Positions 3,581-37,168 of a stretch of DNA of 41,497 nucleotides are shown piece after piece. Position numbers and translations under genes: made by a program. This DNA is from a virus. Numbering within the stretch: position 1 is the stretch's first letter; every line of letters begins with the position of its first letter. The stretch is taken from positions 1-41,497 of the IMG/VR virus record IMGVR_UViG_3300030329_003378, one strand, 5' to 3'. Below the pieces are notes generated by a model that worked only from the letters and a program-made list of their open reading frames with translations, was not told the DNA's origin and made no database searches.

Positions 3581-3892
3581 TCACAGACCTTCCATTAACT
3601 CATCAAAATCCACTGCAGGCTCACAATGGCTTTGTAGCACTTCTGCAACCACTTTTACCAAAGACAAGGGATCGTTTGCCGCAATTACTACCCAAGGATC
3701 ATCTTCTCTCATGCTCTGAGCATACGCTACTGCTGACATATCCTCATCTTCTTGCTTGATGTATTCGATAGCAAGCTCAAGCATTTTGGAAATATGAGGA
3801 CTTATTGAATGAACATCTGACGCTACAAGCGAAAACTCGCCTTGAAAATCTTCGGACTCCGAACCGCAAAACCTTGAATCAGACTCAGCCAT
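3581..3892 (-). CDS. Small acidic protein downstream of terL
   Basis: This 103-residue acidic protein starts MAESDSRF. Its ATG overlaps the terL stop (3885-3887) by 8 nt and is preceded by GGGAG seven bases upstream, so this start is chosen over the longer frame that begins at 3910. It contains a helical middle part (HISKMLELAIEYIKQEDEDMSAV) and a second helix pair near the C-terminus. No known family was recognised. Tight coupling to terL suggests it is made with the packaging proteins. Confidence 0.7.
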   Translation of the reverse strand: MAESDSRFCGSESEDFQGEFSLVASDVHSISPHISKMLELAIEYIKQEDEDMSAVAYAQSMREDDPWVVIAANDPLSLVKVVAEVLQSHCEPAVDFDELMEGL

Positions 3893-12379: not shown

Positions 12380-12411
12380 GGGGGCGGGCCAGCGTGGCCT
12401 GCCCCCTTTTC
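12380..12411 (+). terminator. Rho-independent terminator after DUF932 gene
   Basis: GGGGGCGGGCCA pairs with TGGCCTGCCCCC (12 bp, one G-U) around a GCG loop, followed at once by TTTTCT. It is located 16 bases after the DUF932 stop. Confidence 0.88.
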
Positions 12412-12433
12412 TAATGCGCACAGGAGGAACAAC

Positions 12434-19664: not shown

Positions 19665-19952
19665 TCAATCTTTCCGCTTGTCCTGATGATCCAGCTTGCC
19701 CATCCGCTCCCAGTCAGGCTCAATGTCTTTCATCAACCGAATCATGGTTTCCAGACGGACAATGCTGTTATCAAGGCTTCTTAGCCTGTCAATCATTTTT
19801 ACAGTCATATCCCACAAGGCCTGAATCTTATTCAGGAGAACATTCATCATCCATTTGAGCATGAAATACATCCCAGCCATGAGTATGACTGCGATAAAAA
19901 TAGGAAATCCAAGCTCTTCTACCACCTTTACGGCGTGATTTACCTCTTCCAT
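19665..19952 (-). CDS. Small membrane protein with coiled-coil tail
   Basis: This 95-residue protein has one long hydrophobic helix at about residues 14-40 (ELGFPIFIAVILMAGMYFML), then an amphipathic helical tail rich in Leu, Ile, Arg and Asp that may form a coiled coil. Topology resembles small holin-like or membrane-anchoring phage proteins. It begins at ATG 19952 with GGGGTTAGG upstream. The role is unknown; position before the phosphoesterase gene may mean it anchors DNA-processing proteins, or serves lysis. Confidence 0.6.
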   Translation of the reverse strand: MEEVNHAVKVVEELGFPIFIAVILMAGMYFMLKWMMNVLLNKIQALWDMTVKMIDRLRSLDNSIVRLETMIRLMKDIEPDWERMGKLDHQDKRKD

Positions 19953-20267: not shown

Positions 20268-23200
20268 CTACTCTCTGTTGCCAAGCTCGCCAGACCTCGC
20301 CCTTTTGTCTGCCTTTTTGTAGGCCTCTCGAAGGGGCTCTAGCTGGAAATCCTTGTAATACTCTTCCGCTTTCAAGATATTACTCCGATGAGGCTCAGGC
20401 AGATTTTCAACCATAGCTTTTACAGCATCGGTTTGACTCATTCGGCTAAGGTTTTTAGGCAATGATTTCTTATATGAAGCACGATCATTTTCAGGAACCA
20501 GATTAATCAGAAAGCCGGGCACATCGTCTTTGGCAAGCATTCCAAGGGGAGAACGCATTCGTGAGGACTGCGTAAGAGCCCTTTCGATTTCCTTGGGATC
20601 TATTTTCAATTTACCATCAACAGATTTTGCAAACGTACTAACATATTCAAGCATGAAATATTCAGCTTGATCGGGGTCTTTGTATTTAATAGCCTGCTTC
20701 ATAAAGTAAAGAGCGTCAGCACGGCGACCTGTTGCCATTCCGCCTTGGTATCCGTACTTTTCAAGAACCTTTTCGCGGTACTCACGCACTTCGTCTCGGA
20801 TTCTGTTGTAAGCATTGAGCCCAGGCTCGTAGGTCTGGAACAACACGTCCTCGCCGCCAATATACCTGTCTGACCAGCGACTTGGCTTGCCCATTAAAGC
20901 AGCATATTCTTCACCCATACCAATTGCATCAAACATTTCCTTGGTGCGATCTTTTACTCTTCGGGGTTCAAGTATGCTTGGGTAAGTATCAAGACCCATT
21001 GCAGCGTAAGCCAATGATATATATGGGCCCTTCATTTGGCCCCAGTGGTTCAAGAAGGTTTCTCCTGTGGTTGCTGCAAATTCACCCAGAGTTACATCTC
21101 CTGTGAACATGCGAAGACCGCGAGCGAAAAACTCCCCATCCATACCTAGAGAACTCTGGAACTCAGGTGACGTTGCACCTCTCAAGAAGATGTGATTAGA
21201 ACCATCCTCGCCTTTCCAAAGGTTTATGTGGAACTGCCTTCTTTGGTAGTCAGGAAGCTCTTCCTCAATATGACCCATAACCATATTGTTCCATAACCAA
21301 GCTGCAGCCTGGGTTCCCCACAAAGCAAACATCAAACGAAGTTTAACCTTAAGAGCGAACTGGGCCCCCTTAGAAGCAACCATGCCAGCCGCTCGTGCAG
21401 CTCGCCTTCTTCCTTCTCCGCCGGGATCATAGCCATCGCCGCTGCCACCTCGGCCACCACCGCCACCTCGGCCACCACCGCCACCTCGGCCACCACCGCC
21501 ACCTCCACCTGGAGGGGGAGCCCCCGGAGGCAAGCCTAACTGCTCCGCCACCTGACGCTGAACACGTTCATGGTTGACGGCATTCATAATGTAGCGGAAG
21601 TACCACATATTGTTTCCGGTGTGGAACCTAATAAATGGAGCAGCGTGGCGAGCAAGGCCTTCTGTAAGCGGGCTTGCGTCACCATAGTTGACAAACATTT
21701 CGTTAGACAGCTTCCACGCCATTTCTGCTGGAGAATTCAAAGCCACAACTTCTTCAGGGATAGAGCCCGCGAAAGTGGACGGCCTACCCTGATAGTCTTT
21801 CATATCAGGGTACTTTTCTCTGATTGCTTTTCTGTCGGCTTCAATGTCTTTCTTGAAGTGAAGGTACATGGCGTACCGCAAAGCAGATTCTCTCAATCCA
21901 GTCACCTTGCCAGCAATCTTCCACCACGGCCCCAGTTTCACAAGATCAAGAGCTACACCAGAAACACCTTTCGACAGATAACCCTTAAAGCCAGTTTTAA
22001 CTCCAGTCTGCAAATCAAGTGCAGCCTTAACATCAGGCAATTCGCCGGAAGCAAACAACTCTAACCCGCCCCCCATGGCCATCCAATCAGCAAGGTCTTC
22101 TGATATCTGAGGGGTTTCTCCAGGCTTGTGCATAACAGATTGCGTCAAATCAACCAAGGCTTTAGGCAACATTCGCAATCCAGAAGGTGCAGCCCAAACA
22201 GCTTTTTCAACTTCGCCCATGTTTCTGATGTTGTATCCAAGAAAAGCCTTGGGGCTCAACAGCAGCCATCTCTTGTAACCACCAATAACCAACTGATTGG
22301 CTTTGGAAAATATGCTTGCATCTTTATACCTATCCTTATGAGCGTTTTCCAAAGCCCTGAATTGATTAACAAGCCTTTCGGGAATAAGCATAACATCAGC
22401 AGAATCGCCCATAGCTTGGGCTTCAGCCATTGCTTTTTCATCCAGATTAAAGTGATGAGCCATCAACTTCTCAAACGAATCAAGAGCAATTGAATGCCCG
22501 TTTGAGTGCCCTACAACTGGAGTAGATCCCTTAAGGTGCCATAGCCGATACCCAGGATACTCGTCTATGTAACGAGTCCAATGGTGGTAATCTCTGGGGT
22601 TTACTTTTACACCTCTTGCTTCCGCTTCCTTATCCAATGCCTTATTAAATTCTTCTGCACGCTTCTTAAGGGGCTTTGAAATGTCATACTGATCCCGTAT
22701 GTCCCCGATAGCGTCCATGAAAACAGTGTCAAACAACATGTTTCGCAAAGTAGCAAATTCCACTTCAGCGTAATTGGAGCTAATGTCAGACATGCTGCCC
22801 ATACGCATCTGGTACTCGCCCCGACCAGAAGGTTGTTTGATTGTTCGACCTTCCCACTGTGCTTTAATTAGCTCGGCACGAATCTCGATGTTTTGGTGCT
22901 GGTAATAATCCTTCCGCTGAAGAATGTCTTCCAATTCGGGGAAACCAGCACGGGATGCCGCATCAATAAGAAACTCTCTGACCCGATCAAACACATCTTT
23001 GCGATGCTCGGCAGCAGCCCTGACGTTAATACTGCCACTAACCATGTCCGCATATTCCTGGGCATGCTTCATGACATCGGCTTCAGTCAGATTGTAAGGC
23101 AAGGGGTACTCAGATTCTTCGCCTCTTTCTTTGTGAATCTTGATTGATTCCTTAAGGTCTTGGAAAAGAAGATGAAGATTGAATAGCTCGTACTCATCAC

Positions 23201-26200
23201 GATTCAAATGCCCAACAATGTCTTGAACCGCATGACGAGCGTCACGACCGGCAATTGCATAAAAAGACGGCAATTTATCCAGCCTATCTCTTGCCACAGC
23301 CCAATAAGCAGCTTCACCACCTCGGGTTCTGCCAAGCTCACTTTGTTTGCCCCTAAGCATGGATTTGCGAAGAGATTCGACAAACCCTTTGCCCTTGGAT
23401 TCAAACCTTTCCCTTGCCTTAATGTGCCCATCTACACCGGCAGTCGATCTTGTGTATCGCTCCCTTGTCTCTTCGCCCATCTTCTCCCGGAGTTTGTCAA
23501 CAGATGGGACGGGGCCAGCATCCACTTCGCCTGCAGCACGCATGTTTTTTGCACGCTCCTTAGCATTGCGAGGGGCTCCTGCTGGGTTTGCCATGGCACC
23601 CATTGCATGGAGCCTTCGGGGCTGCCGTATCTCAGCAAGAACGGGACGTTCAGCCAGCTTTCTGCCAAATGCCTCAAAGACTTCCTTGTCTTCAAGCCTG
23701 GGGGTAAGAACTAACCTGCCGTTCTTGATATCTACCCACCCCAAATCAGACAAAAGAACAGACCGGCCAGATTGGGGGTGAACAAATTCAGTTATTCTGT
23801 CATTTGGATCCAACGGGAATGCCCGCTCTTCCGTCCCTTTGTATTCCCCCTTCCACACCCAATCATTTATCACGGTCGTAAACTTGGGCATCAGCTTACT
23901 CATTGGGCTGATAATTTGTTTTTCAAGCATTTCTACGTCTTGCTTAGGCCAAGACGCAGGGTCTTCCGGCTTTACCATTTCTTGCCACCGGCTCTTGTTG
24001 CTGTCACTTCCAATCTTTTCTGGAATCTTGACAGTGCCGAATATTGTTGCTGTTGGGTCAGCGGGGTCTACTTCCTTGTTGCTTTCTTCAAACGGATTTG
24101 GCTGATCCCTTTTAAGCATCCCCTCGGACATCAAAACCTTTGCAGAATTAGGCAAAGCAAACGCAGAACGCCCGTCCATGAAGATTACATACTCATCTCC
24201 AGGCCTGATTGGATTGCCTATCATGTCCCGCATGGTTGTCTGGTCAACTAGGATTGAAACCGCTTGATCTTCAGGCATAGCAAGCATGATTTCGCCAGCG
24301 GTTACACGCTCAAGGACAAAGTAATCATGTCCAGAAACCCCAAACGTGTCGCCGGGCATAAGCTGAGACACAGGTGCTTCTACCAAAGACCTACCCTCAG
24401 TCATGTCCGCCCTGTAATCGCCCCGAGAAGCATTTAGATGAATTGAATTCAAATAATCTTCATGAGAAGAAATGCTAGGCAACAGTTGGCCCTCAGACAA
24501 AGCGTACATAGGCACTTTTCCGCGAGCCCCACCCTGCTTTTTAACCCACTGTGCAACCTTGGCGGGACTTCTTGCCACATTCTTCTGCTCAACCCCCATG
24601 GATTCAACAGAACGTCTTTCAGCTTTAATAGCTTGCAAGTCATACTTTGGCTGCTTCTTTTCCTTTGCCTTAGCTTCAGCAGCCTTAGAGGCAGCCTTAG
24701 CGGCCTTAGCCTTGCTTTTCTTTAGCTGCGTATAGAAGCCAGTGCGATAAACCTCTGCTGCTTTCTTTGCATCAGCAAGCCGCGTAAACCTTTCCTCAAC
24801 AATAGGAGTAGTTGCAGCTTTGCCCCTTGTCCCGTGCAAAGAATAATAAGCTGGTGTGCCGCCATACTTCTGCTTAGTCCATTTGGTTCCACGGAACCTC
24901 GGCATACCTGGCCTTGCTTCGGTTTTGACGATCTTGAATCTACCGTCAGTAGATCGCCAATCTCCCTTATCTTTGACTTTCCATTGCAGTGGTTCTGCAG
25001 GTGTTGCAGGTGCTTTAGGGGCCTTAGCAACCTCCTTCTTGGCTGCACGAAAAGCCTTGGCTACATCAGAAACAGGCTCAATAAGTTTCTGTGTGTGTAA
25101 CCCATGGATGCCGTTGCCCAAGACAATTTTTGCATCTTTCCAAATCTCAGGGATTTTAACATCATCACTAAGGCCCATAAGCCTAGCCATCATGCGAGGA
25201 GTCACTCTTTTGATTCTGCCATCAGGCATAATAATCCGAGGAACTTCTGCAGGAGTAGACTTAAGCGTTGGAGACGGGCCGCCAGAGTTGGCTGCAGCCG
25301 TAATTCCTCTTGTAGCAGACCCCCCCATGGTAATAATCGGCTTACCTGGATCAAGCAGACCCCGTTCAATCATGTTGTCAAGACGAACTCTTTCCCAGTT
25401 TTTCTTGCCGGGTTTTCTGCTGACAAATTCACTATCAGGGGCTGAATCAATAAGATCCTTTACAAGCTCATACCAATCTCCTGGCTTGGATTGTTCTGGC
25501 AAAGCAGGCAAAGAGCCAACGTCTTTTCTCACAGCTTGAATAATTGTTCTTCGTCTGGTCTGAGCAGCGCCATAATCAGCCGCATCAACAGTAACCAATC
25601 GGTAGTCATACCCAGAATCTACTAAAGACTCTGTGATTATCCAACCAAGTTCAGTGTCAAAATAATGGGGCACATTTTCAATTGTTACTGAAGGAGGCTT
25701 GGCACCCCGAATGATTTCAGCAACTTTCTCTGCATGAGCAATGTCGTTTTGATTTAGCCCGCGCCCCTTCTTGGCCGCCGAAAGATTTTTGCATTCAGGA
25801 CTTGCGTGAAACAGATCTGGTTTGGCTTCAGCTACTTCTGCAGGGGTAACATCAAGAGCGTCCCTAGCTTCATATTTGGTGCCGTGCTGAAGGTTGTAGT
25901 AGTAAACAATCTTCTCTTCAAGCTCAACAGCACCTCGGTGTGTAACCGTAGAAAGCCCTGCCTCCATAGTGCCCATGCCTGAATGGGTGGTAAACGTGCG
26001 AACCGGCTCTGTCTTGGTTGCAACAGCTTTGGCGGGAGCCTGGGGTGCAACAGGAGCAGCTTCGGCAACAGGAGCAGCTTCGGCAACAGGAGCAGCTTCG
26101 GCAACAGGAGCAGCTTCGGCAACAGGAGCAGATAGCTTCTCACCTCTTTTTCTCACGGCTTCAACAGCCGCTTCTTGCGGGGTTAGGGTTTTTGCCGGAG

Positions 26201-29200
26201 TAGCGGGAGCTTCAGAAATAACCTGTTCAGATGGCTTGGTTTCAGGAAAATAGCCAAACTCATTCAAATCATCACCAGCAAAGCGAACATCTCTGGCCGG
26301 GACTTTCATTGACCTCACCGGCCAATCCTTGTCTCCCATTTCCAGCTCTGCCTCACTAACCATTCCGTGCTGCTTTGCGTAATCTTCAGAAAGCGACACC
26401 CAGTCCCCAGGCTTAATAGGATCATTATTAGGTGACGATCTGTATATTGTCACTTCTGCGTCTGGCCTTCCCCTCATTCTGCGTATAGCAGCTATGGACT
26501 GCTTGCTAGAAAGCGATGACGCATCACCAACATAAAGCTCAGGACGGCTGTAAACATCTTCTGGAATCTGTTCCGATTCGGTCAGGTCATGCAGCCTTGC
26601 ACCTTCTGGATTTGGCCTGTGTGCCGCATGCCAAGATTCCTCAACAGGAGCTTCTTCCGCAGCCAGAGCGGGCGGAGCGGTTGCATCAGGCGCTTTTGGA
26701 ACCTGCTCCACAACAGGAGCTTCTTCCGCAGCCGGAGCGGGCGGAGCAGGTGTAGGGACCATCACTTCTGTTAGTGAAGTATCCACAGCCACCGGCTTGC
26801 CCGCTTTGTCACGCCCGTACACCACCCCCTCGTCAACCCGCTCAACCGTAACCTCAGTGCCAGCCTTGGGCTCCTCAGCCCGGCTCATGCCATACTCAGT
26901 CGCCTCGGCACTAGCTTTGCCCACAACGATCTCAGAGCCCGCCTGAACGCCACTAGGAGTCTTGGTGATGTCCCATAGCTCCAAGGGCTTCTCGGCTTCC
27001 GCCACCTTAACTGGAGCCTTGGGCTCCTGGCCAGCTTCTCTTTGTTGAACCGCTCTTTGGCCCGCAGTCCGACCTTCAGCCAATTGCTGCTCCCACATAG
27101 CTTCTTTGCCGGGCAGTTCTGGCCGCTTCTTGAACGGGGTAACAATCGGAGGGCGAGGCGGAGCTTCAGGCAAAGCCTTTCGTGGGGTAGGGCCAGCCTG
27201 AATTGGCGTAGTTTCTTCAACTGGCCTTGGTAGCTTTCGTGGCCTACCTGTTCCAGGTGCTAATGGCTTGCCTGCTTGCGGCGTGCTTGGCATTGTAAAT
27301 GGAAGACTAGTCGGGCCAGTTGGGCCAGCAGGAGCAGCTTTGCTAGACTTGAACCTACCGGCAACCAAAGCATCTCCAAGAGAAACCGTCTGGACATCAA
27401 TGTTAGTGGGCAATTTGCCCAACATATCCTTAAACGCCTTTACAGCCTCTTCTCTTGTCGCATTTGGATTAGCTTGCCGCCACTTGGACAGGAAGTCGCC
27501 AAGTTTCTTTGTCCAAACCTCAATAGCTTGGGCACGCAACAGGCTCTGCTTTGCCGCTGCAGACGAACCTTCTGTCAAACGAGGAACTCCGCCCGGTTCC
27601 TTTTTACCCTTTACAACATAGGCCCAGTGGTTGGCAATTTCCTGTGGGGTGACTCGGACGTTTCCAAATTTAAGGTTCTTGCCTGTAAAGCCAATGCCAA
27701 GAAGAGTCATTGTAAAGAAATCTGACCAAGAGGAATGGTCAGCGTCTGGGGGTGGAGCCTCTGCAAAACCAGACGCTACCGCAAGCTCTTCCATGCCTTT
27801 GATTGTGCCAAAAGCAACGCCGCCGCCAACAAGAGAAGTCCCCGTAATTGCGGCCATGTTGCCAACGCCAAATCCGCCCGGTTTCGTTGCCATACTCCAG
27901 GCTTTAACCATGTTCCTAGTACCGGGAACAACTATAGAAGCCGTAGGCACAGCAAAGCCAATAAATTCGCCGGTCGAAACAGAACCTGGGTATACATTTC
28001 TTGACGCAGCAAACTCAGCCGCAAAGTCATAATACTCCGCAGCCAAATCAGTAGCTTCATCAATGGTTAGGCCAGCAACTTCACTTGCCATCCATCCAAC
28101 AGCAATAGAACCAGCAGTTTCAACAGTAGGCCCAAGAAAAGGCCCAATGATTGGGGTCTTTCCGGCTAATTTTCCCGCAGTTTTTCCTACAGATTTACCC
28201 CAAAGTTTGGCTGCAGTGGCAAATGAAGCAAACCCTACCCCCCCTTTAGCAATGCCATACGCCAAAGCCTTCTTCTCAACCGCACGAATCATCTCAAGTT
28301 GGTCAGGAGCAAAGTTCTTGGCAAGCTCTTCATTCCACTGGCTTTCAACAGAACGCAATTCTGCAGCCTGCTCTTCGTCAATCAAGCCATCCTTTAGAGC
28401 TTTTTCAATACCCTGGCCCATACGGCTTGGGTCAAAATACGTTTCCCCACCAAAGGTTCTGTATGGGGCATCATTTGCGTTAAACAAAGCGGGCTGCAAA
28501 CGCTTGATGTTTGCCATCTTTCGCTCAATAGCATCCTCTGGAATGTATTCCAGATGCTCGAACATCCCACCATCCAATGCACCATATGCAATCGCATCAA
28601 CTACAGCATTCAAGTTATCAATAGCCCATTCCCGGTCGTGATAACTGTATTCCGGCTTTTCTAATGCATCGTTGGTTAGGCGAGACATCGTAAGTTCTGC
28701 AACGTACCCAGGATAGTCCTCTAACGCACCCCCCTTTGACATCCAAAACAGATTTCTAGCATTGCTATCGCCAAGCAAATCAATAGCTTCATTTTCCCTA
28801 GCCCAAGTTCCATACCTTTCCTCATCTACAGGAGGAGTAATAGAAAACAAATCAGCCTGCTTACCCCTTGATGGCTGATCCAAAAACCTTGGGTCAAATG
28901 CTTCGGGAATATCACTGCTAGGATCTTGAGGCATCACTCCTTCTAGTGGTGATGAGTGTGGCTTTAGAGCTTCTTTTATCTGCTTTTCGTTTTCTGGACG
29001 AGTAAAATGTTTTGACAATTCCTCGCTTCGTTTGCGAGAAAATTCATCTGCTTGCTCTGAACTCCACCCCTCGCCTCGACCATAGACTTCACCACTTTCA
29101 AAGGCAAGGCGAAGAATCTCGTCATCGTCACGAAGAATCCTGCCACCCCAAACGGTTGGGACAACAATGTTTTCCCCGTCAACCTCATAGCTTGCAGTCC

Positions 29201-29351
29201 GCTCTGTTACGGGCTGGCCATACTGATCGTAATATATAGTCCGACCAGATTCGGGGTGTCGGCTGTAACCGCCATCCAAAATCGTGTCTCGACCCAAGAC
29301 CTCATCCAAAATATCACGGTCAATTCCTGGCGGAGTAAAATCGTTACTCAT
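20268..29351 (-). CDS. Giant polyvalent virion protein with C5 DNA methyltransferase domain
   Basis: This 3027-residue protein takes about 22% of the genome. Order: an N-terminal module (about residues 27-115, YSRHPESGRTIYYDQYG... EVDGENIVVPTVWGG) seen in giant phage virion proteins; a Gly/Ala-rich, membrane-active-looking segment (about 368-525); Pro/Ala/Lys linkers; an ADP-ribosyltransferase-like segment (about 935-1036, Arg 971, GDWVSLSEDY, E1031); four AEAAPV repeats (about 1075-1101); and a cytosine-C5 methyltransferase (about 1117-1420). Methyltransferase motifs: F1120-THSGMGTMEAG, S-P-E-C1187, E1225-N-V, QTRRR 1264-1268 and the GNG motif around N1413. A PLxRFG-like motif (APFIRFHTGNN, about 2575) and a poly-Gly/Arg linker (about 2613-2641) follow. 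Likely an ejected protein that counters host defence, like P1 DarB in concept. GAGGCTCTAA precedes ATG 29351. Confidence 0.8.
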   Translation of the reverse strand: MSNDFTPPGIDRDILDEVLGRDTILDGGYSRHPESGRTIYYDQYGQPVTERTASYEVDGENIVVPTVWGGRILRDDDEILRLAFESGEVYGRGEGWSSEQADEFSRKRSEELSKHFTRPENEKQIKEALKPHSSPLEGVMPQDPSSDIPEAFDPRFLDQPSRGKQADLFSITPPVDEERYGTWARENEAIDLLGDSNARNLFWMSKGGALEDYPGYVAELTMSRLTNDALEKPEYSYHDREWAIDNLNAVVDAIAYGALDGGMFEHLEYIPEDAIERKMANIKRLQPALFNANDAPYRTFGGETYFDPSRMGQGIEKALKDGLIDEEQAAELRSVESQWNEELAKNFAPDQLEMIRAVEKKALAYGIAKGGVGFASFATAAKLWGKSVGKTAGKLAGKTPIIGPFLGPTVETAGSIAVGWMASEVAGLTIDEATDLAAEYYDFAAEFAASRNVYPGSVSTGEFIGFAVPTASIVVPGTRNMVKAWSMATKPGGFGVGNMAAITGTSLVGGGVAFGTIKGMEELAVASGFAEAPPPDADHSSWSDFFTMTLLGIGFTGKNLKFGNVRVTPQEIANHWAYVVKGKKEPGGVPRLTEGSSAAAKQSLLRAQAIEVWTKKLGDFLSKWRQANPNATREEAVKAFKDMLGKLPTNIDVQTVSLGDALVAGRFKSSKAAPAGPTGPTSLPFTMPSTPQAGKPLAPGTGRPRKLPRPVEETTPIQAGPTPRKALPEAPPRPPIVTPFKKRPELPGKEAMWEQQLAEGRTAGQRAVQQREAGQEPKAPVKVAEAEKPLELWDITKTPSGVQAGSEIVVGKASAEATEYGMSRAEEPKAGTEVTVERVDEGVVYGRDKAGKPVAVDTSLTEVMVPTPAPPAPAAEEAPVVEQVPKAPDATAPPALAAEEAPVEESWHAAHRPNPEGARLHDLTESEQIPEDVYSRPELYVGDASSLSSKQSIAAIRRMRGRPDAEVTIYRSSPNNDPIKPGDWVSLSEDYAKQHGMVSEAELEMGDKDWPVRSMKVPARDVRFAGDDLNEFGYFPETKPSEQVISEAPATPAKTLTPQEAAVEAVRKRGEKLSAPVAEAAPVAEAAPVAEAAPVAEAAPVAPQAPAKAVATKTEPVRTFTTHSGMGTMEAGLSTVTHRGAVELEEKIVYYYNLQHGTKYEARDALDVTPAEVAEAKPDLFHASPECKNLSAAKKGRGLNQNDIAHAEKVAEIIRGAKPPSVTIENVPHYFDTELGWIITESLVDSGYDYRLVTVDAADYGAAQTRRRTIIQAVRKDVGSLPALPEQSKPGDWYELVKDLIDSAPDSEFVSRKPGKKNWERVRLDNMIERGLLDPGKPIITMGGSATRGITAAANSGGPSPTLKSTPAEVPRIIMPDGRIKRVTPRMMARLMGLSDDVKIPEIWKDAKIVLGNGIHGLHTQKLIEPVSDVAKAFRAAKKEVAKAPKAPATPAEPLQWKVKDKGDWRSTDGRFKIVKTEARPGMPRFRGTKWTKQKYGGTPAYYSLHGTRGKAATTPIVEERFTRLADAKKAAEVYRTGFYTQLKKSKAKAAKAASKAAEAKAKEKKQPKYDLQAIKAERRSVESMGVEQKNVARSPAKVAQWVKKQGGARGKVPMYALSEGQLLPSISSHEDYLNSIHLNASRGDYRADMTEGRSLVEAPVSQLMPGDTFGVSGHDYFVLERVTAGEIMLAMPEDQAVSILVDQTTMRDMIGNPIRPGDEYVIFMDGRSAFALPNSAKVLMSEGMLKRDQPNPFEESNKEVDPADPTATIFGTVKIPEKIGSDSNKSRWQEMVKPEDPASWPKQDVEMLEKQIISPMSKLMPKFTTVINDWVWKGEYKGTEERAFPLDPNDRITEFVHPQSGRSVLLSDLGWVDIKNGRLVLTPRLEDKEVFEAFGRKLAERPVLAEIRQPRRLHAMGAMANPAGAPRNAKERAKNMRAAGEVDAGPVPSVDKLREKMGEETRERYTRSTAGVDGHIKARERFESKGKGFVESLRKSMLRGKQSELGRTRGGEAAYWAVARDRLDKLPSFYAIAGRDARHAVQDIVGHLNRDEYELFNLHLLFQDLKESIKIHKERGEESEYPLPYNLTEADVMKHAQEYADMVSGSINVRAAAEHRKDVFDRVREFLIDAASRAGFPELEDILQRKDYYQHQNIEIRAELIKAQWEGRTIKQPSGRGEYQMRMGSMSDISSNYAEVEFATLRNMLFDTVFMDAIGDIRDQYDISKPLKKRAEEFNKALDKEAEARGVKVNPRDYHHWTRYIDEYPGYRLWHLKGSTPVVGHSNGHSIALDSFEKLMAHHFNLDEKAMAEAQAMGDSADVMLIPERLVNQFRALENAHKDRYKDASIFSKANQLVIGGYKRWLLLSPKAFLGYNIRNMGEVEKAVWAAPSGLRMLPKALVDLTQSVMHKPGETPQISEDLADWMAMGGGLELFASGELPDVKAALDLQTGVKTGFKGYLSKGVSGVALDLVKLGPWWKIAGKVTGLRESALRYAMYLHFKKDIEADRKAIREKYPDMKDYQGRPSTFAGSIPEEVVALNSPAEMAWKLSNEMFVNYGDASPLTEGLARHAAPFIRFHTGNNMWYFRYIMNAVNHERVQRQVAEQLGLPPGAPPPGGGGGGGRGGGGGRGGGGGRGGSGDGYDPGGEGRRRAARAAGMVASKGAQFALKVKLRLMFALWGTQAAAWLWNNMVMGHIEEELPDYQRRQFHINLWKGEDGSNHIFLRGATSPEFQSSLGMDGEFFARGLRMFTGDVTLGEFAATTGETFLNHWGQMKGPYISLAYAAMGLDTYPSILEPRRVKDRTKEMFDAIGMGEEYAALMGKPSRWSDRYIGGEDVLFQTYEPGLNAYNRIRDEVREYREKVLEKYGYQGGMATGRRADALYFMKQAIKYKDPDQAEYFMLEYVSTFAKSVDGKLKIDPKEIERALTQSSRMRSPLGMLAKDDVPGFLINLVPENDRASYKKSLPKNLSRMSQTDAVKAMVENLPEPHRSNILKAEEYYKDFQLEPLREAYKKADKRARSGELGNRE
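21444..21497. repeat. Three tandem 18-bp repeats coding Gly/Arg linker
   Basis: GCCACCTCGGCCACCACC occurs at 21444-21461, 21462-21479 and 21480-21497, followed by a degenerate copy. It encodes the GGGGGRGG linker between the PLxRFG-like part and the next helical part of the giant protein. The copy number could vary between strains by slippage. Confidence 0.85.
26049..26130. repeat. Four tandem 18-bp repeats coding AEAAPV linker
   Basis: AACAGGAGCAGCTTCGGC occurs at 26049-26066, 26067-26084, 26085-26102 and 26103-26120, with a partial fifth copy to 26130. The copies are exact, so expansion is recent. They encode the Ala/Glu/Pro/Val spacer between the ADP-ribosyltransferase-like and methyltransferase parts. 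Confidence 0.9.
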
Positions 29352-29410: not shown

Positions 29411-31366
29411 CTAATTGTCATTTTGCTGAACAGGTTCCGCCTTCATCCTGCCACGGCGATCTACTCCGCTTGTCAAATTAGCGTGGTATCTCTGCATGCC
29501 CGCAGTGTCGAGGCCATACTGTTCTCGGTATCTTGCCAAATACTGCCTTGCATATTCTTCGCTAACCCCCAGCATCATGGCAAAATCAGAAATTTGCCCC
29601 TGAGTTAAAGAAGTGCTTTCGTCTAAATCTGGAATACCTTGTTGGTTGATGTAATCAGATAGGTACGAACTTTCTCCCTCAACAGTTTCAGAAGCAGGTT
29701 TATCTTTCGTGCCCTTCATGCTTTCCCTAAACCCACTCACATAATCACTGTCAGCGGTAGTCAAGTCAGGTTCAACCGCCAAAGATGCCTGAGCCGCAGC
29801 ATCATCTTTAGCAAGCTGCTTTCTTACAGCTTCAATTTTTACAGAATCATCAATATGTGTTATGTAGTTTTGTGCCCACCATGCTGCGTCAAGCGGATTT
29901 TGTTCATCAATATGCCACCCAGCCGAACGCGCTTCTGTAACCAAAGCAGGAATAAACTCGGTAAGAAATTGGTTGCTATCAGTAATAACGCTAGGCAAAA
30001 CACGCATTGCAGTCGAAGGATCTGTTTCACCAGTCAGTTTTGAAGCAGCTAAACGCATAAGGTCATCCATGCTTCCAGAATCAATTCGCTTGTTACTTCC
30101 TGTTGCATAAAGCCCAAGATTTGGATTTGACCCATGGATATTGTGGTTGTAAAGCGACCTGGATCTTGTGTGGAGCTTTTGCTGCCTTTTAGAAAGGAAG
30201 TCATATTGATCCTGAAGAGAACTTCTAATACCTTGCTGAACAGGGCCATCCCCAGGCGTTGAATCACCCCCAACGTCATACGCGCCCCCAGCACCGCCAC
30301 CACCTTTACCGCTATCCATCTGGGCCTGAATAGATTTTAATTGCGTTCCAACATTTTTGATTTCATCGTCAATTGCAGTCTTTTTTTCGTTACGAGTTCT
30401 GTCACGAACCGTGTCAATAAGGCCCTCAAGACTAATATGATTTTTAATTAAGTCCTGCCACTCGTCTTGAGTAGGAACAATGCCGTATCGAACCATGAAG
30501 TCATGGGTTCTCTGGTCGATAACTCCTGCTTCCAACGCTTGCCTACGAGCTTTATCACCTTGAATGTGATTAAAGTTCTCTGCAAGAACCATATCGGATG
30601 CGGCTTGCCTTGCAGCAGACCTACCTGCAGAAGAAACACCATCGGCAATAATTGCAGCGTTTTCGGCCTTGATTGCACCCTGAATTGCCGCCAAATCTTC
30701 TTTGGAGTAAATCGCGGTTTTTCCAGTCTTGGGAAAACGTGCAACAATTCCATCGCCATAAGGATTGGGATATAGCTCTACCCCAGGAATGTTATATCCT
30801 ACCCTCTGACTTGCAGGAGCGTTAGCGCCGCGAGTTGCAACATTGCGTATTGCCTGAGCTTGCTCTGGGGTAACGCCTTCTGGAATACGAACATCGCTGG
30901 CCACAGGAGCAGTTGCCGGAGGGAGCCCGCCATCAGCAGACTTTGGGGAAGGGGCACCATCATCACTCGCAGGAGGCTGAGTTTGTTGCTCAGGTTCAGT
31001 GCTTCCACCAATGGTCATCATAGGAGTGCCATCGGCAATAGCCTTATCTATCATTCTTTGACGAATGCGATCCTGTGCGTCCATTTCAGCATTCTTAACG
31101 GCTTCAGCAACGCTAACCCTAGATTCGCCAGAAATCGTAGACAGGAATTCACCTATGGGGCTAGACTCCATGGCCTGGCTAAACATCTTCTCAATCGTAG
31201 GGTAAAGAATTTCTTTAGCCTGATCTGCTGCCATTTTCTTTTCAAAAGCGTACCGATCCCACATCTCGTCGCTGCGGCTATCGAGTCGCTTATCTAGCGC
31301 TAGCTGTTGATTGAAATTTTGTTGGCCAAGGTTGGCGGCCAATTGTACGCCCTGAAATGCACTCAT
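29411..31366 (-). CDS. Internal virion (ejection-type) protein
   Basis: This 651-residue protein starts SAFQGVQLAANLGQQNFNQQ after Met. It is helical at the N-terminus, followed by a Pro/Ala/Ser/Asp-rich linker (near residues 120-165), then long charged helices and a C-terminal helical domain (YVSGFRESMKGT...). No enzymatic motif is seen. Size, helix content and place between another internal protein and the giant gene fit the core or ejection protein class of short-tailed phages. AGGA lies upstream of ATG 31366. Assignment is from context. Confidence 0.6.
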   Translation of the reverse strand: MSAFQGVQLAANLGQQNFNQQLALDKRLDSRSDEMWDRYAFEKKMAADQAKEILYPTIEKMFSQAMESSPIGEFLSTISGESRVSVAEAVKNAEMDAQDRIRQRMIDKAIADGTPMMTIGGSTEPEQQTQPPASDDGAPSPKSADGGLPPATAPVASDVRIPEGVTPEQAQAIRNVATRGANAPASQRVGYNIPGVELYPNPYGDGIVARFPKTGKTAIYSKEDLAAIQGAIKAENAAIIADGVSSAGRSAARQAASDMVLAENFNHIQGDKARRQALEAGVIDQRTHDFMVRYGIVPTQDEWQDLIKNHISLEGLIDTVRDRTRNEKKTAIDDEIKNVGTQLKSIQAQMDSGKGGGGAGGAYDVGGDSTPGDGPVQQGIRSSLQDQYDFLSKRQQKLHTRSRSLYNHNIHGSNPNLGLYATGSNKRIDSGSMDDLMRLAASKLTGETDPSTAMRVLPSVITDSNQFLTEFIPALVTEARSAGWHIDEQNPLDAAWWAQNYITHIDDSVKIEAVRKQLAKDDAAAQASLAVEPDLTTADSDYVSGFRESMKGTKDKPASETVEGESSYLSDYINQQGIPDLDESTSLTQGQISDFAMMLGVSEEYARQYLARYREQYGLDTAGMQRYHANLTSGVDRRGRMKAEPVQQNDN

Positions 31367-32397: not shown

Positions 32398-35300
32398 CTA
32401 ACTCCTAACTCTTGTCTGACCAGCCATTGCAAGAGTGGCTGTTATTTGCTCAAATGCCCACGGGGTAGCCGAGGCTGATTGATAAACCTTTACAAAAACA
32501 AATGACCCGCGAGCCCTAGTGTAGCTCCAGGGGTTTCTTCCAGAATTCCATTCCGAAGTAATTACAGGGGAACCCGCCTTTGCGGCTTCGACTGTATCGC
32601 CAACATAAACCTCGTACTTAATAACAGATGACTGCTCATCTAAAATTGATGCCAATCTCATCAGCTTTGTCTCGGTGACAGTATCAGCATATATAGGGCC
32701 TATCCAAACATAGCTGTCAATATCTGTTCCTGCATCTGATGTTGCATCTGAATCAAAAGTTCTAATGTGCCCATCAAACCCACCCATAAACACTCCCCTA
32801 TTTCCAGTAATAGGGCTGCTGTAATACATTGCGTAAGAAGGCCCAATTACTGCTGGGTAATGCAAAGGCCAGAACGAATCATTTCTGTCATCGTAAAAGT
32901 AATGTTTAGTCTCACCAGTTTCCTGGGTCGGAGGAATTAGGAATATATGCACCCCAAACAAGGTGTGGTCATACATCAACCGGACTTGATGTTTATCAAG
33001 ATCAAGGCCAGAAAATTCCTTGTCTAAACGGCCTATAGAAACTCGCTCGCTTCTATCTACGTTGTATTCGTTTGGCTGAAGTCTGTATAGCCCATCAGCA
33101 GCAAAGAAGAACAGGGTCTTGTTTGCAGCATTGCACCAAGCCATTGGAGAAATAATTCCAACCGTTAAACTTACTGGAATAAGCTGGGCTGTTTCCACCG
33201 ATGGATCATCAGTCAAAGCATAAATTGAATCTCGACATCCAATAGCCAATGAACTAGAGTGCAAAGGAAATATCGCACGAATTGGATCGCCAATTTCAGC
33301 CAAATTTGTAGAGTTGCCAGCAATCGGACCACTCATATCGTCTACAACACTGGTATTCCAATCCCAGAAATTACCTGTTCCAGACATCCACCAGTTGTTG
33401 GGCTCATCCGCTTTCCCAGCCAACACCAGTCGCCCCATGTATTGGGTAACAAGCCTTGGTTTAAGCTCGGTACTGTAAGTAACCCCATCAGTTTCAAAAT
33501 TGCTTCCGCCGGGCAAGTCTGGAAGGAATTCATCTTCTCCAGTTATCAGCTTGCCTTCCTCTTTAGCTTTTTCATACCAATCCTCTACCGTCCTTGTTGC
33601 CGGGTTGTACCTGTAGTACCTAGTCCCATCTGCAAAGTAATACTTGTCTAAGAAGGATGTGCCAGTAACAACACTCCTATTAGCATTAAAAGTATTTGTA
33701 GTGTGATTCCCAGGACCGGCAAAAGACTTGTTATCTCGACTATCCCTAACCTTGCCATCAGCAACTGCAATAGTAATTGGATTTCTAATCGTAGCCAGAT
33801 CCGCTATGTATTCAAATTTGTAATCAGCAAACGCTGGTTCCATCCAAGTCCTAAGCCAATCAGCGCCCCAATCAGAGCCAAACATAAGCTGTGCGCAATT
33901 TTTTACACGAACCCAGGCCATGCCCGAACCGTCATCAGTGCCATCAGTGTCGTTGCCCTTAATGTTTGACGAACCAATGCCGCTTGTGTCAACGCCAGAT
34001 TCAAGATGCCCACTAAAATACCCTTTGTATTCTTGGGCATTTTGTCCTGACAACCCATCGGCGTTTTGGTATCCGCCAGTTGCATGCTCCAGCTTACATG
34101 GGTATGAAACCGTAACAACACTGTTGCCTTCAACTATTGAATCCTGGCCAGCATCTCTTCTATACAAATGATATCTATCATCCGATCCGCCGTTAGAAGA
34201 AGTCAAAGTAAGCTCGGTAGTTCCAGAAATTTCCCCATCAAAAGACACAGGATGGCTTCCGGTTGGAAAACCTGTAGCATTACCTCGAATGTTTCCAGAG
34301 CTACCGCCTCCCGCATACCAATGCATCCAGTGGACTGAAGTGTAAAGCTCTTTATGAACCCCGAAAATCAACCCCGACGAAGCTCTTGTATTGTCAAGAG
34401 AAGTATCAGTGTCTTCTGTGCCGCCAAGGTATGCATTTAGATCAAGCTCGGTTTCAGATACAGTTGGCTGCTGCTCACCAAACTTAATAGACTCGCCCTG
34501 AAACAAAATAGACAGATTTCCATTAAGGCATTTTACTTCAATATCATGCCAAACAGCTAAATCTGGATCATCATACGGGTCATAATGCTCAACTTGGATA
34601 TTGCTTCTTTGATGAGTCCCATCGAAATCAATAATGTTTCCAAGAGCAGCTTTGAAAAAGTCTTCTCCCCCAGAAGCTCCTTCATTATCAACCGATTCAA
34701 TAGTAGCTACTACAAATCGAGGAGCAACATGCCAATCAGGGGAAGGGACACCATACGAATCCCCAGTAAACTGCCCAGCACCTGGAGTAAGGGTTCCGTC
34801 AGTAATAAATCCAATAAAAAGACCTTTAGAACTATCTTCTTCATTACTTGTTGGAATTGACCCCACAGTAACATCTTCATTAGTAGTGCTGTAATTAACT
34901 TTTAGCCTAAACACCATTCCGTAGTAATACTTGGAATTAGTTTGCTTAATGGTTCCCTCGTTATCTTTGCCCCAAAAAGTTACGGAACAAAGAAGGTTAT
35001 CTATAGAGGAACCGTTGTGAGTCTCCCAATGGTTGTCAGTTGTGTCCCAAAGCCGATACAGGTTTTTGGTGTGGTGGCCGCCACTAGAAAACGAATAGTC
35101 GCTATCTGTACCATATAGCTGAGTTACAAAGGGGGTTTCGTAAGAGGAGTTGCCACTAACTTTTGCCATTTTCTGGTGATCCCAAGGGGCAGGCCTAACC
35201 GAACAAGAACAAGCCCAGTCATTCCCCTTCTTAGAATTAAACGGCAAATCATCAACTTCCGTGTAAGGGAAAATGGCAGACGAAAAAGCCATTTTATTGG

Positions 35301-36108
35301 TTGGCAAAGCATTGTCGCTGCCAACTATTTCTCCATTACCACCGCCAATAAAAATATTGTCTACAGGAACACGATCCTTTGCATCAATTCCAACATTGGG
35401 CTCAAACATATGAAACCGAGTTTTGCCATCTAACTCATTGCCGCCAATAGTAGTCCCCGAACCTGATGCATGCCCTTCTGAACGATACATCCCAGTTGTG
35501 TCTTTACCCCTGGGCCTTTCAGGATCAGAATAAGGAAGAGGTGGACATGGAGTAATGCAATCCCTGTCATTAAACTTCCTGCGAACCCACACTCCTCCGT
35601 CAGCAGTTCTTACACGGCCCCCGTTTGGAAGCAATGGAATAGATTTAGAAGACGAGGCCAAGTTATAAGAACCATCGTCCCACAAGGAATCAGACGTAAC
35701 GTCAGGGGCCTTTCTTGTAGACTCCCTTAATACAGGCTGTTCTGGCCTATAAGAAACATGAGTGTTTTCAGGAACATTCATGTGGTCAAGCCATTGCATT
35801 ACTTTAGCCAAAGAACCAATGTAAGGGCCAGTTTCATAAATCATTGGCCCCGCGGCACCAATAATGCTTGCCGAATCGGCTGGCGGAACAATGGTGTCTA
35901 TTAGCTGGATTTTTCCGCCAAGACCTGGGCCTGTTACTTGAACTATGCCCGGCCTGCGACCACCCCTTGCCCGGTTTTCCATAGAATCCCAAGCAATAAC
36001 ATTTTTGCAGTCAACAGTAGTCATTTCTATCTGGCCTACATGCGACTGACTTTGGTCAAGCCCGCCAACAGGAAATGGGACCACAATGTCTTTTGTTTGA
36101 GGTTTCAT
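32398..36108 (-). CDS. Tail nozzle-like protein (T7 gp12/P22 gp10-type) with jelly-roll insert
   Basis: This 1236-residue protein starts KPQTKDIVVPFPVGGLDQSQ and continues TTVDCKNVIAWDSMENRARGG(R)RPG. That N-terminal word (P-x-GGLD...TT-x-DCKNV...RxRPG) recurs in tail nozzle/stabilisation proteins. The C-terminal third has beta-propeller-like repeats (FLDKYYFADGTRYYRYNPAT..., RLVLAGKADEPNNWWMSGTG). The middle (about residues 350-620) reads like a concanavalin/LamG insert (HDIEVKCLNGNLSILFQGES). It is larger than usual for this class and probably forms the tail tube and part of the host-contact surface. It overlaps the preceding gene by four bases. Confidence 0.65.
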   Translation of the reverse strand: MKPQTKDIVVPFPVGGLDQSQSHVGQIEMTTVDCKNVIAWDSMENRARGGRRPGIVQVTGPGLGGKIQLIDTIVPPADSASIIGAAGPMIYETGPYIGSLAKVMQWLDHMNVPENTHVSYRPEQPVLRESTRKAPDVTSDSLWDDGSYNLASSSKSIPLLPNGGRVRTADGGVWVRRKFNDRDCITPCPPLPYSDPERPRGKDTTGMYRSEGHASGSGTTIGGNELDGKTRFHMFEPNVGIDAKDRVPVDNIFIGGGNGEIVGSDNALPTNKMAFSSAIFPYTEVDDLPFNSKKGNDWACSCSVRPAPWDHQKMAKVSGNSSYETPFVTQLYGTDSDYSFSSGGHHTKNLYRLWDTTDNHWETHNGSSIDNLLCSVTFWGKDNEGTIKQTNSKYYYGMVFRLKVNYSTTNEDVTVGSIPTSNEEDSSKGLFIGFITDGTLTPGAGQFTGDSYGVPSPDWHVAPRFVVATIESVDNEGASGGEDFFKAALGNIIDFDGTHQRSNIQVEHYDPYDDPDLAVWHDIEVKCLNGNLSILFQGESIKFGEQQPTVSETELDLNAYLGGTEDTDTSLDNTRASSGLIFGVHKELYTSVHWMHWYAGGGSSGNIRGNATGFPTGSHPVSFDGEISGTTELTLTSSNGGSDDRYHLYRRDAGQDSIVEGNSVVTVSYPCKLEHATGGYQNADGLSGQNAQEYKGYFSGHLESGVDTSGIGSSNIKGNDTDGTDDGSGMAWVRVKNCAQLMFGSDWGADWLRTWMEPAFADYKFEYIADLATIRNPITIAVADGKVRDSRDNKSFAGPGNHTTNTFNANRSVVTGTSFLDKYYFADGTRYYRYNPATRTVEDWYEKAKEEGKLITGEDEFLPDLPGGSNFETDGVTYSTELKPRLVTQYMGRLVLAGKADEPNNWWMSGTGNFWDWNTSVVDDMSGPIAGNSTNLAEIGDPIRAIFPLHSSSLAIGCRDSIYALTDDPSVETAQLIPVSLTVGIISPMAWCNAANKTLFFFAADGLYRLQPNEYNVDRSERVSIGRLDKEFSGLDLDKHQVRLMYDHTLFGVHIFLIPPTQETGETKHYFYDDRNDSFWPLHYPAVIGPSYAMYYSSPITGNRGVFMGGFDGHIRTFDSDATSDAGTDIDSYVWIGPIYADTVTETKLMRLASILDEQSSVIKYEVYVGDTVEAAKAGSPVITSEWNSGRNPWSYTRARGSFVFVKVYQSASATPWAFEQITATLAMAGQTRVRS

Positions 36109-36470
36109 TGAGCCAGCCTATCCCTAGTCCTAATAGCCAAATCAACATCCTGAGTTCCACTAGCTACCAATTCAACATACCCAGTCTTTGCTAAATCAAA
36201 TCCATAGTCTTCATACGTCCATACGGCAGATTCACCAGCAAGAAGAAGAACAGAATCTATTCGTATAGCAGCGGAATCTGAAACTGTTGAGCTACTCTTG
36301 TACCGCACCGTAACAGTAGTCGATGCTGTAGATTCCCTGTTATATGCACTCGCCCAATAAAACTCTCTAGCAGAAACATCCCTAGAGTTTTTGCTTTTAG
36401 ACAACGGCACAGAAGCCAGGGCTGTGCCATCCGTCTTTGTTCCCATCGTTGTGTCGTATCTTTTATACAT
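36105..36470 (-). CDS. Hypothetical beta-rich head-tail protein
   Basis: This 121-residue protein starts MYKRYDTTMGTKTDGTALAS. ATG 36470 overlaps the preceding stop by one base (TGATG) and is chosen over TTG 36473. It is beta-rich (TVTVRYKSSSTVSDSAAIRI, GYVELVASGTQDVDLAIRTR). It lies between adaptor and nozzle genes, so a head-tail connector, minor tail or decoration protein is possible. No family was recognised. Confidence 0.65.
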   Translation of the reverse strand: MYKRYDTTMGTKTDGTALASVPLSKSKNSRDVSAREFYWASAYNRESTASTTVTVRYKSSSTVSDSAAIRIDSVLLLAGESAVWTYEDYGFDLAKTGYVELVASGTQDVDLAIRTRDRLAQ

Positions 36471-37168
36471 CAAGATGTCGGGTCAGCAATAGTGTCAAAT
36501 GGCAGCCTATTGTTTCGATTAGAAGAAGTAACGCCATTCATAATTGGGCCGTAATCAGGCTGCACCAGCCCATCATGTGCCAATGCTCTTTGGAACAATG
36601 GCGACTGCTCTGTTTCCAGAAGTCTTTGAGCCATGTTCTCTTCCTCATAACCCAAAGCAAAAGCCCTAACCATTTGCACCAGAACTGATTCACAAAACTG
36701 AGGAACAGCAGCACTTTCAGTTGACTCGCTCAACTCTTTCCAGGACTGCAGGTAGGTTAGCGTCAAAACATCTGCAGATGTCGGCGTGGGCGCAAGCTCC
36801 AAAATAGGTGGCTTATTTGCCTTTGCAGAACCTTCGGGCCACACAATGGAAGCAATGTAGTTTGCACCTGTTGAAATGCTTGTGTTTCTGGTGCGGACCA
36901 CTTCCTGAATCGTTGTAAGCCTAATGCTGTCAGTCAACCCGTCTTTCATATAGGCATTAACTATTTCCCCAACATCATTGGGTAGCTCTACGCTTGAAAG
37001 ATTTGCAGTCAAGGTAACATCCACTGGCCCACGCAGACGGAAGTTCCATTGATAGCCATACAAATGACGGCCCGCCTGATTCACAATGTCTGTAGTGGAC
37101 AACTGCGAGGCAGGCGTGCCGCCAAGTGCGTGTTCAACGTGTGATTGTAGTTGAGCTAATGTTGCCAT
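36470..37168 (-). CDS. Head-tail adaptor (tail tubular A-like)
   Basis: This 232-residue protein begins with a helical segment (LAQLQSHVEHALGG, then LSTTDIVNQAGRHLYGYQWN), followed by beta strands (VDVTLTANLSSVELPNDVGE) and a C-terminal helical domain (FCESVLVQMVRAFALGYEEE). The D-I-(V)-N-x-A-G-x-x-L-x...W word and domain order match phage adaptor proteins (T7 gp11/P22 gp4 class) that connect portal to nozzle. Its location before the nozzle gene agrees. Confidence 0.7.
   Translation of the reverse strand: MATLAQLQSHVEHALGGTPASQLSTTDIVNQAGRHLYGYQWNFRLRGPVDVTLTANLSSVELPNDVGEIVNAYMKDGLTDSIRLTTIQEVVRTRNTSISTGANYIASIVWPEGSAKANKPPILELAPTPTSADVLTLTYLQSWKELSESTESAAVPQFCESVLVQMVRAFALGYEEENMAQRLLETEQSPLFQRALAHDGLVQPDYGPIMNGVTSSNRNNRLPFDTIADPTS

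What the first reader, a model, noticed from the sequence alone, without database searches (positions are those of the whole stretch)
20268..29351. 3027-residue virion-type protein that carries a complete cytosine-C5 DNA methyltransferase and an ADP-ribosyltransferase-like segment
One gene takes more than a fifth of the genome and joins head/ejection-type segments to a cytosine methyltransferase with all key motifs (F1120, C1187 in SPEC, ENV at 1225, QTRRR at 1264, GNG near 1413). Polyvalent phage proteins (Iyer et al. 2017 class; P1 DarB) are known to be packaged and ejected to modify or protect incoming DNA. Ejection here is inferred from gene position and the PLxRFG-like part, not shown. 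It may be a self-delivered counter-restriction protein that marks phage DNA on entry.
Basis: partly seen in the sequence, partly recalled or inferred. Interest (0 to 1): 0.82.

Follow-up and report, generated by a model that had tools for sequence, protein, structure and literature searches.

The report
Giant phage protein carrying cytosine methyltransferase
An uncultivated phage makes one 3,027-residue protein, probably carried in its particle and pushed into the host with its DNA, that contains a cytosine-methylating enzyme; its closest sequenced cousin carries an adenine-methylating enzyme plus helicase in the same slot, which suggests a swappable payload for protecting phage DNA.

Summary
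The ORF is real: 20268-29351, minus strand, 3027 aa, 21.9% of a 41,497-bp record with 101-nt terminal direct repeats. It contains a whole C5-cytosine methyltransferase domain (aa ~1117-1436): Pfam E 4.7e-22, confident model, Z 27.6 to M.HhaI. An ART-like segment (aa 914-1037) is supported more weakly. The gene is the last large one of the late cluster, after 333- and 651-aa genes and before a holin. That matches the N4 ejection cassette in number and size.

(1) In the nearest relative (TerL 77%), a 3665-aa protein at the same locus shares both ends of the window's protein (23-31% identity). Its middle holds an N6-methyltransferase plus Strawberry-notch helicase (DarB-type) and no C5 enzyme. 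(2) The window's enzyme belongs to a C5-MTase group with an altered catalytic motif, mostly SPVCK (SPECK here) instead of PPCQ. About 45 of 76 tree members lie inside giant ORFs; at least four also carry polyvalent domain LPD38.

Verdict: a polyvalent-type phage protein with a C5-methyltransferase cargo, a new variant of a known kind. Packaging, ejection, activity and counter-restriction are inferred. The PLxRFG-like claim was not supported.

The parts
20268..29351 (-). 3027-aa giant ORF (P0001), polyvalent-type virion protein
   Evidence: same-locus giant ORFs in relatives; AGAGG upstream of ATG
27651..28829 (-). N-terminal conserved block, aa 175-567
   Evidence: 31% identity, E 1.8e-45, to aa 90-479 of the sister giant G001
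26619..26795 (-). Ala/Pro/Glu-rich linker, aa 853-911
   Evidence: low entropy
26241..26612 (-). ART-like domain, aa 914-1037 (PHROG name 'ParB C-terminal domain')
   Evidence: phrog_2579 E 1.8e-25; conserved R/S-T/E positions in homologues; model pLDDT 84.7; mostly ART-fold chains, best Z 4.9
25977..26195 (-). Ala/Pro/Val linker with APVAEA repeats, low-entropy stretch aa 1053-1125 (runs into the start of the MTase)
25044..26003 (-). C5-cytosine DNA methyltransferase domain, aa ~1117-1436
   Evidence: PF00145 E 4.7e-22; phrog_116; model pLDDT mostly above 90; Z 27.6 to M.HhaI
25791..25793 (-). catalytic Cys1187 codon (motif IV, SPECK)
   Evidence: invariant in alignments A6 and A7
24645..24782 (-). 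Lys/Ala-rich linker, aa 1524-1569
20460..23639 (-). C-terminal conserved block, aa 1905-2964
   Evidence: 23-27% identity, E 3.0e-37 and 4.3e-23, to aa 2535-3638 of G001
21354..21587 (-). Gly/Arg-rich repeat linker, aa 2589-2666
29411..31366 (-). 651-aa gene directly upstream, candidate ejection protein
   Evidence: position; weak homologue in G001 (E 2e-5); N4 gp51 is 644 aa (PMC12633501)
31397..32398 (-). 333-aa gene, candidate ejection protein
   Evidence: position; homologue in G001
32398..36108 (-). 1236-aa tail-type protein
   Evidence: phrog_376 tail, E 1.2e-4; conserved in all relatives with the locus
36470..37168 (-). head-tail adaptor (SU10 type)
   Evidence: PF24175 above its cut-off
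38936..40111 (-). major head protein
   Evidence: phrog_9953 E 3.6e-13
132..1940 (-). portal / head-tail adaptor
   Evidence: phrog_332 E 3.7e-12, portal phrogs weaker
3885..5735 (-). terminase large subunit
   Evidence: phrog_5989 and phrog_2
19665..19952 (-). holin-like gene downstream
   Evidence: phrog_18771 E 5.8e-13; phrog_4898 holin E 1.7e-4

Best explanation
The protein is a late, virion-borne polyvalent-type protein. It is the largest member of a three-gene ejection set (333, 651 and 3027 aa) and is released into the host with the DNA as domains joined by flexible linkers. In the new cell the cytosine methyltransferase uses SAM to methylate C5 of cytosines in the incoming genome while it enters, so that host restriction enzymes do not cut; the ART-like domain would modify a host component. 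The middle of the protein is a replaceable cargo slot: the sister phage fills it with an adenine-MTase plus helicase of DarB type. Shown: the ORF, the MTase sequence match and catalytic residues, a confident predicted MTase fold, the late-gene position, the homologous ends and different middle in the sister phage, and the recurrence of this MTase group in giant phage ORFs. Inferred: packaging, ejection, catalytic activity, target sequence and protective role.
For: MTase identity and predicted fold. Catalytic C/E/R/N retained, and invariant or nearly so across 31 aligned relatives. Last large gene of the structural run, before holin; the locus holds a giant ORF in every relative contig that reaches it. 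Sister G001: ends homologous, middle N6-MTase + AAA_34 + Helicase_C_4, the methylase-helicase dyad Iyer et al. describe for DarB (PMC5512222). Same-locus relatives carry ART-PolyVal and LPD38 and some an HExxH motif. The same MTase group is embedded in giants with LPD38 in the same ORF; in G064 it follows TerL, portal, MCP and an internal virion protein. Three-gene set like N4 gp50/51/52 (3500/644/150 aa) with beads-on-a-string domains. [quoted passage not shown]
Against: No virion proteomics. No Pfam LPD, ART-PolyVal or zincin motif in the protein itself, and its C-terminal block does not match the relatives' LPD38 region by HMM or profile comparison. H1123 and E1186 depart from near-invariant positions. 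No helicase accompanies the C5 enzyme, whereas Iyer et al. infer that DarB-type protection needs the ATPase. Host and its restriction systems are unknown.
Confidence: 0.55

Rival explanations
1. The protein is a virion protein, but its methyltransferase acts in the producing cell: it is made late and methylates progeny DNA before packaging, so particles leave already marked and nothing needs to be ejected as an enzyme.
For: Late-gene position means expression when progeny DNA is abundant. Standalone members of the same MTase group exist, so delivery is not essential to the enzyme family.
Against: Does not explain why the enzyme is kept inside a giant protein in about 45 of 76 tree members, or why the same slot holds a DarB-type cargo in the sister phage.
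Confidence: 0.22
2. The methyltransferase domain is degenerate or only structural: H1123 and E1186 have weakened catalysis, and the giant's role is in forming the ejection channel.
For: Both substitutions are at near-invariant positions, and His1123 was not seen in the aligned homologues.
Against: C1187, E1225, R1266/R1268 and N1413 are intact. The non-canonical motif IV is group-wide (40 of 45 giants VCK), so it is not decay. 50-54% identity to intact relatives.
Confidence: 0.12
3. The enzyme is delivered to act on the host: it methylates the host chromosome (or RNA) to change gene expression or to trigger methylation-dependent host nucleases against host DNA, with the ART-like domain as a second host-directed effector.
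For: Polyvalent proteins are predicted to hit several host targets at once (PMC5512222); the ART-like neighbour is typical of host-directed activity.
Against: No direct evidence; the same-slot DarB-type cargo points to DNA protection.
Confidence: 0.08
4. The ORF is an assembly chimera that joins an unrelated methyltransferase to a virion gene.
For: No near relative with the same full-length architecture was found.
Against: Continuous 9-kb ORF with linkers in frame around the MTase; equivalent fusions in dozens of independent contigs.
Confidence: 0.02

Closest known systems
Polyvalent proteins of phages (Iyer et al. 2017, PMC5512222)
   Same: Very large, linker-joined, several unrelated enzymatic domains, next to virion genes of a portal-terminase phage; same-locus relatives carry the named domains ART-PolyVal and LPD38.
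   Different: The paper describes adenine MTases nearly always fused to SF2 helicases; its main text does not mention a C5-cytosine MTase. The window protein has no Pfam-named LPD or metallopeptidase.
Phage P1 DarB (virion-borne antirestriction MTase-helicase)
   Same: DNA methyltransferase in a large late protein; the sister phage G001 has the DarB domain pair in the homologous protein.
   Different: C5-cytosine rather than N6-adenine enzyme; no helicase; podovirus-like rather than P1 myovirus context.
M.HhaI / PF00145 C5-cytosine methyltransferases
   Same: Whole fold (Z 27.6), catalytic Cys, Glu, Arg-x-Arg, Asn.
   Different: Motif IV SPECK instead of PPCQ, motif-I Phe replaced by His; embedded in a giant virion-type protein.
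CmoX cytosine carboxymethyltransferase (phage S-B43, PDB 8YF3)
   Same: Phage C5 enzyme of the same fold (Z 24.3).
   Different: CmoX is recognised by SPPC and Arg350 at the HhaI Asn304 position; the window has SPEC and Asn1413, so SAM rather than carboxy-SAM is expected.
Coliphage N4 ejection proteins gp50-gp51-gp52 (PMC12633501)
   Same: A giant of about 3 kaa plus a ~650-aa and a smaller gene in one cassette; domains on flexible linkers.
   Different: No sequence relation found; the cargo is an MTase, not an RNA polymerase.

Membership tests
Phage polyvalent proteins (Iyer et al. 2017) | One polypeptide with two or more domains of disparate activity | tested here: met
   C5-MTase certain; ART-like domain moderately supported; conserved N- and C-terminal blocks.
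Phage polyvalent proteins (Iyer et al. 2017) | Encoded among late/virion genes of a portal-terminase phage | tested here: met
Phage polyvalent proteins (Iyer et al. 2017) | Named polyvalent domain (LPD, ART-PolyVal, zincin) in the protein itself (diagnostic, not required) | tested here: not met
   None by Pfam at E<0.1; no HExxH. Same-locus relatives do have them.
Phage polyvalent proteins (Iyer et al. 2017) | Packaged and delivered into the host with the DNA | not testable with these tools
   Needs virion proteomics and ejection assay.
DarB (N6-MTase plus SF2 helicase) | Adenine MTase with NPP(Y/F) fused to SWI2/SNF2-type helicase | tested here: not met
   No NPP[YF]-type motif or helicase in P0001; present in sister G001 (NPPF at aa 1183, AAA_34, Helicase_C_4).
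C5-cytosine DNA methyltransferase (PF00145) | Family score over the curated cut-off and the whole fold | tested here: met
   79.3 against 22 bits; Z 27.6 over 295 residues.
C5-cytosine DNA methyltransferase (PF00145) | Catalytic Cys, ENV Glu, QxRxR, motif-X Asn | tested here: met
   C1187, E1225, Q1264/R1266/R1268, N1413.
C5-cytosine DNA methyltransferase (PF00145) | Pro-Cys dipeptide in motif IV (common, not required by the Pfam model) | tested here: not met
   SP-E-C-K; the relatives have mostly SP-V-C-K.
CmoX carboxymethyltransferase | SPPC and Arg at the HhaI Asn304 position | tested here: not met
   SPEC and Asn1413.
ADP-ribosyltransferase fold | ART fold and conserved R-S/T-E residues | tested here: inconclusive
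   Conserved Arg, Ser/Thr and Glu positions in homologues; mostly ART-fold chains but best Z 4.9 and no significant Foldseek hit.
ART-PolyVal (PF18760) | Pfam match | tested here: not met
   No match in P0001; profile comparison not significant; the two domains are neighbours in L002.
N4-type virion RNA polymerase | Single-subunit RNAP domain | tested here: not met
   No RNAP family hit by Pfam or PHROGs.

The most novel reading that the evidence does not exclude
Many uncultivated phages use a so far undescribed group of C5-cytosine methyltransferases with a remodelled catalytic loop (SP[V/E/T]CK) that have become payloads of ejected giant proteins, alternating with DarB-type and ART payloads in one cargo slot. 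Cytosine marking at the moment of DNA entry would then be a second, independent branch of virion-borne counter-restriction, and the altered loop may change target choice or chemistry.
Probability: 0.4. Interest if true: 0.78.

Novelty: new variant of a known kind. Interest (0 to 1): 0.6.

Why it matters
Virion-borne antirestriction is best known from P1's adenine-type DarB system. A locus where close relatives carry either a C5-cytosine or an N6-adenine enzyme between homologous protein ends makes a 'payload slot' directly testable. It also gives a family of cytosine methyltransferases with an unusual active-site loop, for which the tblastn searches of the phage-isolate collection found no member.

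Tried and rejected
Near-identity and tblastn searches of phage isolates with the whole gene and the C-terminal third found nothing; among the rows listed, the MTase found only enzymes annotated as separate genes at 23-30% identity. Single-protein IMG/VR scans with the C-terminus or the MTase found no relatives; TerL, MCP and MTase alignments were needed. MCP relatives in the bacterial and archaeal genome collection: none, so no host and no prophage evidence. LPD38 in the C-terminus: not found by HMM or hhalign, although groups B and C of relatives weakly matched each other elsewhere. PLxRFG-like motif: only a regex match at aa 2561, not shared with the sister protein; dropped. Transmembrane segments by a simple hydropathy cut-off: none in the giant or its two upstream genes, so membrane insertion has no support here. 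CmoX-type carboxymethylation considered because 8YF3 matched; rejected on the Asn/Arg criterion. Genome tetramer depletion (GCGC 0.58, GTAC 0.61) may reflect host restriction avoidance but points to no specific target. A plasmid search with a related MTase gave only ~30% hits, led by cyanobacterial plasmids. Several giants were scanned against Pfam only, and four (G032, G036, G048, G051) not by hmmscan at all, so absent domains may be missed.

Full report
WHAT IS THERE. The window is a 41,497-base virus record whose first and last 101 bases are direct repeats at 99% identity, consistent with a complete or circularly closed genome. The reported ORF is on the minus strand, 20268-29351, 3027 aa. 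AGAGG lies a few bases before its ATG. PHROG and Pfam hits place it in a podovirus-like genome. In transcription order on the minus strand: small and large terminase, portal, then (across the record ends) major head protein, SU10-type adaptor, a 1236-aa tail protein, 333-aa and 651-aa genes, the giant, an 87-aa ORF, holin, metallophosphoesterase, exonuclease, Erf-like annealing protein and replication initiator.

THE METHYLTRANSFERASE. Pfam PF00145 matches aa 1123-1415 at E 4.7e-22, PHROG 116 at 3.2e-32 and NCBIfam dcm at 2.6e-16, although below dcm's strict cut-off. An AlphaFold2 model made with 29 relatives has block-mean pLDDT mostly above 90 over the domain. It matches M.HhaI with Z 27.6 over 295 residues, nearly end to end. 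Cys1187, Glu1225, Gln1264-x-Arg1266-x-Arg1268 and Asn1413 are present. Two positions differ from the textbook enzyme: H1123 stands where motif I has Phe, and motif IV reads SPECK instead of PPCQ.

A METHYLTRANSFERASE GROUP OF GIANT PROTEINS. The first profile scan found two further giants (L167 with SPEC, L222 with SPVC). An alignment of the three then found 80 IMG/VR loci, up to 53% identical to the window's enzyme, and one contig of a Deltaproteobacteria MAG. By ORF length, 48 of 81 loci lie in frames of at least 1000 aa and 38 in at least 2000. Motif IV is VCK in 40 of 45 giant members of the tree set and 20 of 31 others; the PPCQ type is mostly standalone. Caveat: the search patterns themselves asked for SP[EV]C or a VTIEN-type motif, so these proportions describe the set found, not all C5-MTases. 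In a maximum-likelihood tree, 'giant' against 'standalone' needs 4 changes where shuffled labels need 24; the window sits in a well-supported 19-row clade with 14 giants. Long branches make the deeper joins unsafe. In four records (G074, G071, G084, G086; a fifth weakly) Pfam LPD38 lies in a giant ORF that, by its length and strand, is the one holding the MTase. Where a P22-type portal was found, the giant is on the same strand in 14 of 15 records (strands compared by hand; several of these matches are weak). In G064, the MTase giant is the last gene of a run with terminase, portal, major head protein and internal virion protein.

THE SAME LOCUS IN RELATIVES. TerL and MCP searches gave 17 and 80 related contigs. 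Every contig that covers the locus has one giant ORF there, usually preceded by a 0.6-0.8-kaa ORF in the nearer relatives; complete ones are 2.9 to 4.1 kaa. The giants diverge fast. Only the nearest relative, G001 (TerL 77%, MCP 85%), is recognisably homologous along both ends: aa 175-567 (31%, E 1.8e-45), 1905-2236 (27%) and 2238-2964 (23%). Between these, G001 has an N6-MTase (Pfam hit just below cut-off, but NPPF motif and PHROG methyltransferase hits), AAA_34 (E 4.9e-83) and Helicase_C_4 (E 5.1e-69). That is the methylase-helicase dyad that Iyer et al. describe for DarB, in its Strawberry-notch version. It has no C5-MTase. Others at this locus carry ART-PolyVal (G008, G010, G011, G034, G037, G042, and G018 split across its contig ends), LPD38 (G034, G056, and by profile G032, G036, G048, G051) and HExxH motifs. 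Across 63 related contigs PF00145 is otherwise found only in separate shorter ORFs (G002, G015, G036, G056). So within this phage group the C5 cargo is, so far, unique to the window.

THE ART-LIKE SEGMENT. aa 914-1037 match a PHROG labelled 'ParB C-terminal domain' and 55 IMG/VR loci. The homologues keep Y-R, G-[DN]-[WF]-[VI]-[ST] and E-x-G-[YFW], the order expected of an R-S/T-E ADP-ribosyltransferase. The model (pLDDT 84.7) finds mostly ART-fold chains, but best Z is 4.9 and Foldseek finds nothing significant. Probable, not proven. It recurs in the same giant as this MTase type in L263, L267 and L268, and beside ART-PolyVal in a virion-region gene of phage ctTUS972.

HOW IT MOST LIKELY WORKS. 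The layout (333, 651, 3027 aa, after the tail gene) resembles the N4 ejection cassette gp52, gp51 and gp50 (150, 644 and 3500 aa), where the giant is proposed to pass a ~35 A channel as beads on a string (PMC12633501). The window protein has four low-complexity linkers, two of them flanking the ART-like domain, the second running into the MTase, and one behind the MTase. P1 Dar proteins are ejected with the DNA and protect it from type I restriction (PMC12810830); DarB is a virion component acting in cis (PMC5512222). With a DarB-type cargo in the homologous protein of the sister phage, protection of entering DNA is the best-supported purpose. Not shown: that the protein is in the virion, that it is ejected, that it methylates, and what it recognises. 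Asn1413 (HhaI Asn304; Arg350 in CmoX) argues for SAM and plain methylation rather than carboxymethylation (PMC12783734).

KNOWN OR NEW. Polyvalent proteins are a described class; this protein fits it in build and context, although it lacks a Pfam-named polyvalent domain of its own and its delivery is untested. Iyer et al. describe adenine MTases in them; 'cytosine' appears in that paper only in a reference title. My text searches of open-access papers found no description of C5-MTases in ejected giant phage proteins. Subscription papers and preprints were not searched, and the supplementary domain lists of Iyer et al. were not available, so priority is not established. I rate it a new variant of a known kind.

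Noticed in passing
L043:1-10998 (G001 giant, contig IMGVR_UViG_3300030329_001707): Sister phage's 3665-aa protein carries N6-MTase plus Strawberry-notch helicase between ends homologous to the window's protein.
   Followed up: yes
window 38936-40111 versus G018, G007, G003: Major head protein is 92-94% identical to these relatives while TerL and portal are only 58-63%; either strong constraint on the capsid or recent exchange of the head gene.
   Followed up: no
window 6445-6804 and 6808-7149: Two adjacent ~115-aa genes that both match the same pairs of adjacent genes in G001, G003 and G007; looks like an old tandem duplication of unknown function.
   Followed up: no
phrog_2579; L320-L374; window 26241-26612: The PHROG name 'ParB C-terminal domain' probably labels an ART-like domain; the annotation has spread to Mycobacterium, Gordonia and Vibrio phages.
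   Followed up: partly
L035:16196-17173, L131, L132 and L025: Other members of the phage group carry separate C5-MTase ORFs outside the giant gene.
   Followed up: no
window 9026-13149: Plus-strand block of ORFs with almost no match among those scanned; only 11146-12363 hits a PHROG (1362) of unknown function.
   Followed up: no
window, whole: GCGC (0.58) and GTAC (0.61) are under-represented against a Markov expectation, possibly host restriction avoidance.
   Followed up: no
window 2352-2414 and 2858-2920: 63-nt direct repeat at 75% identity within two neighbouring genes upstream of the portal.
   Followed up: no
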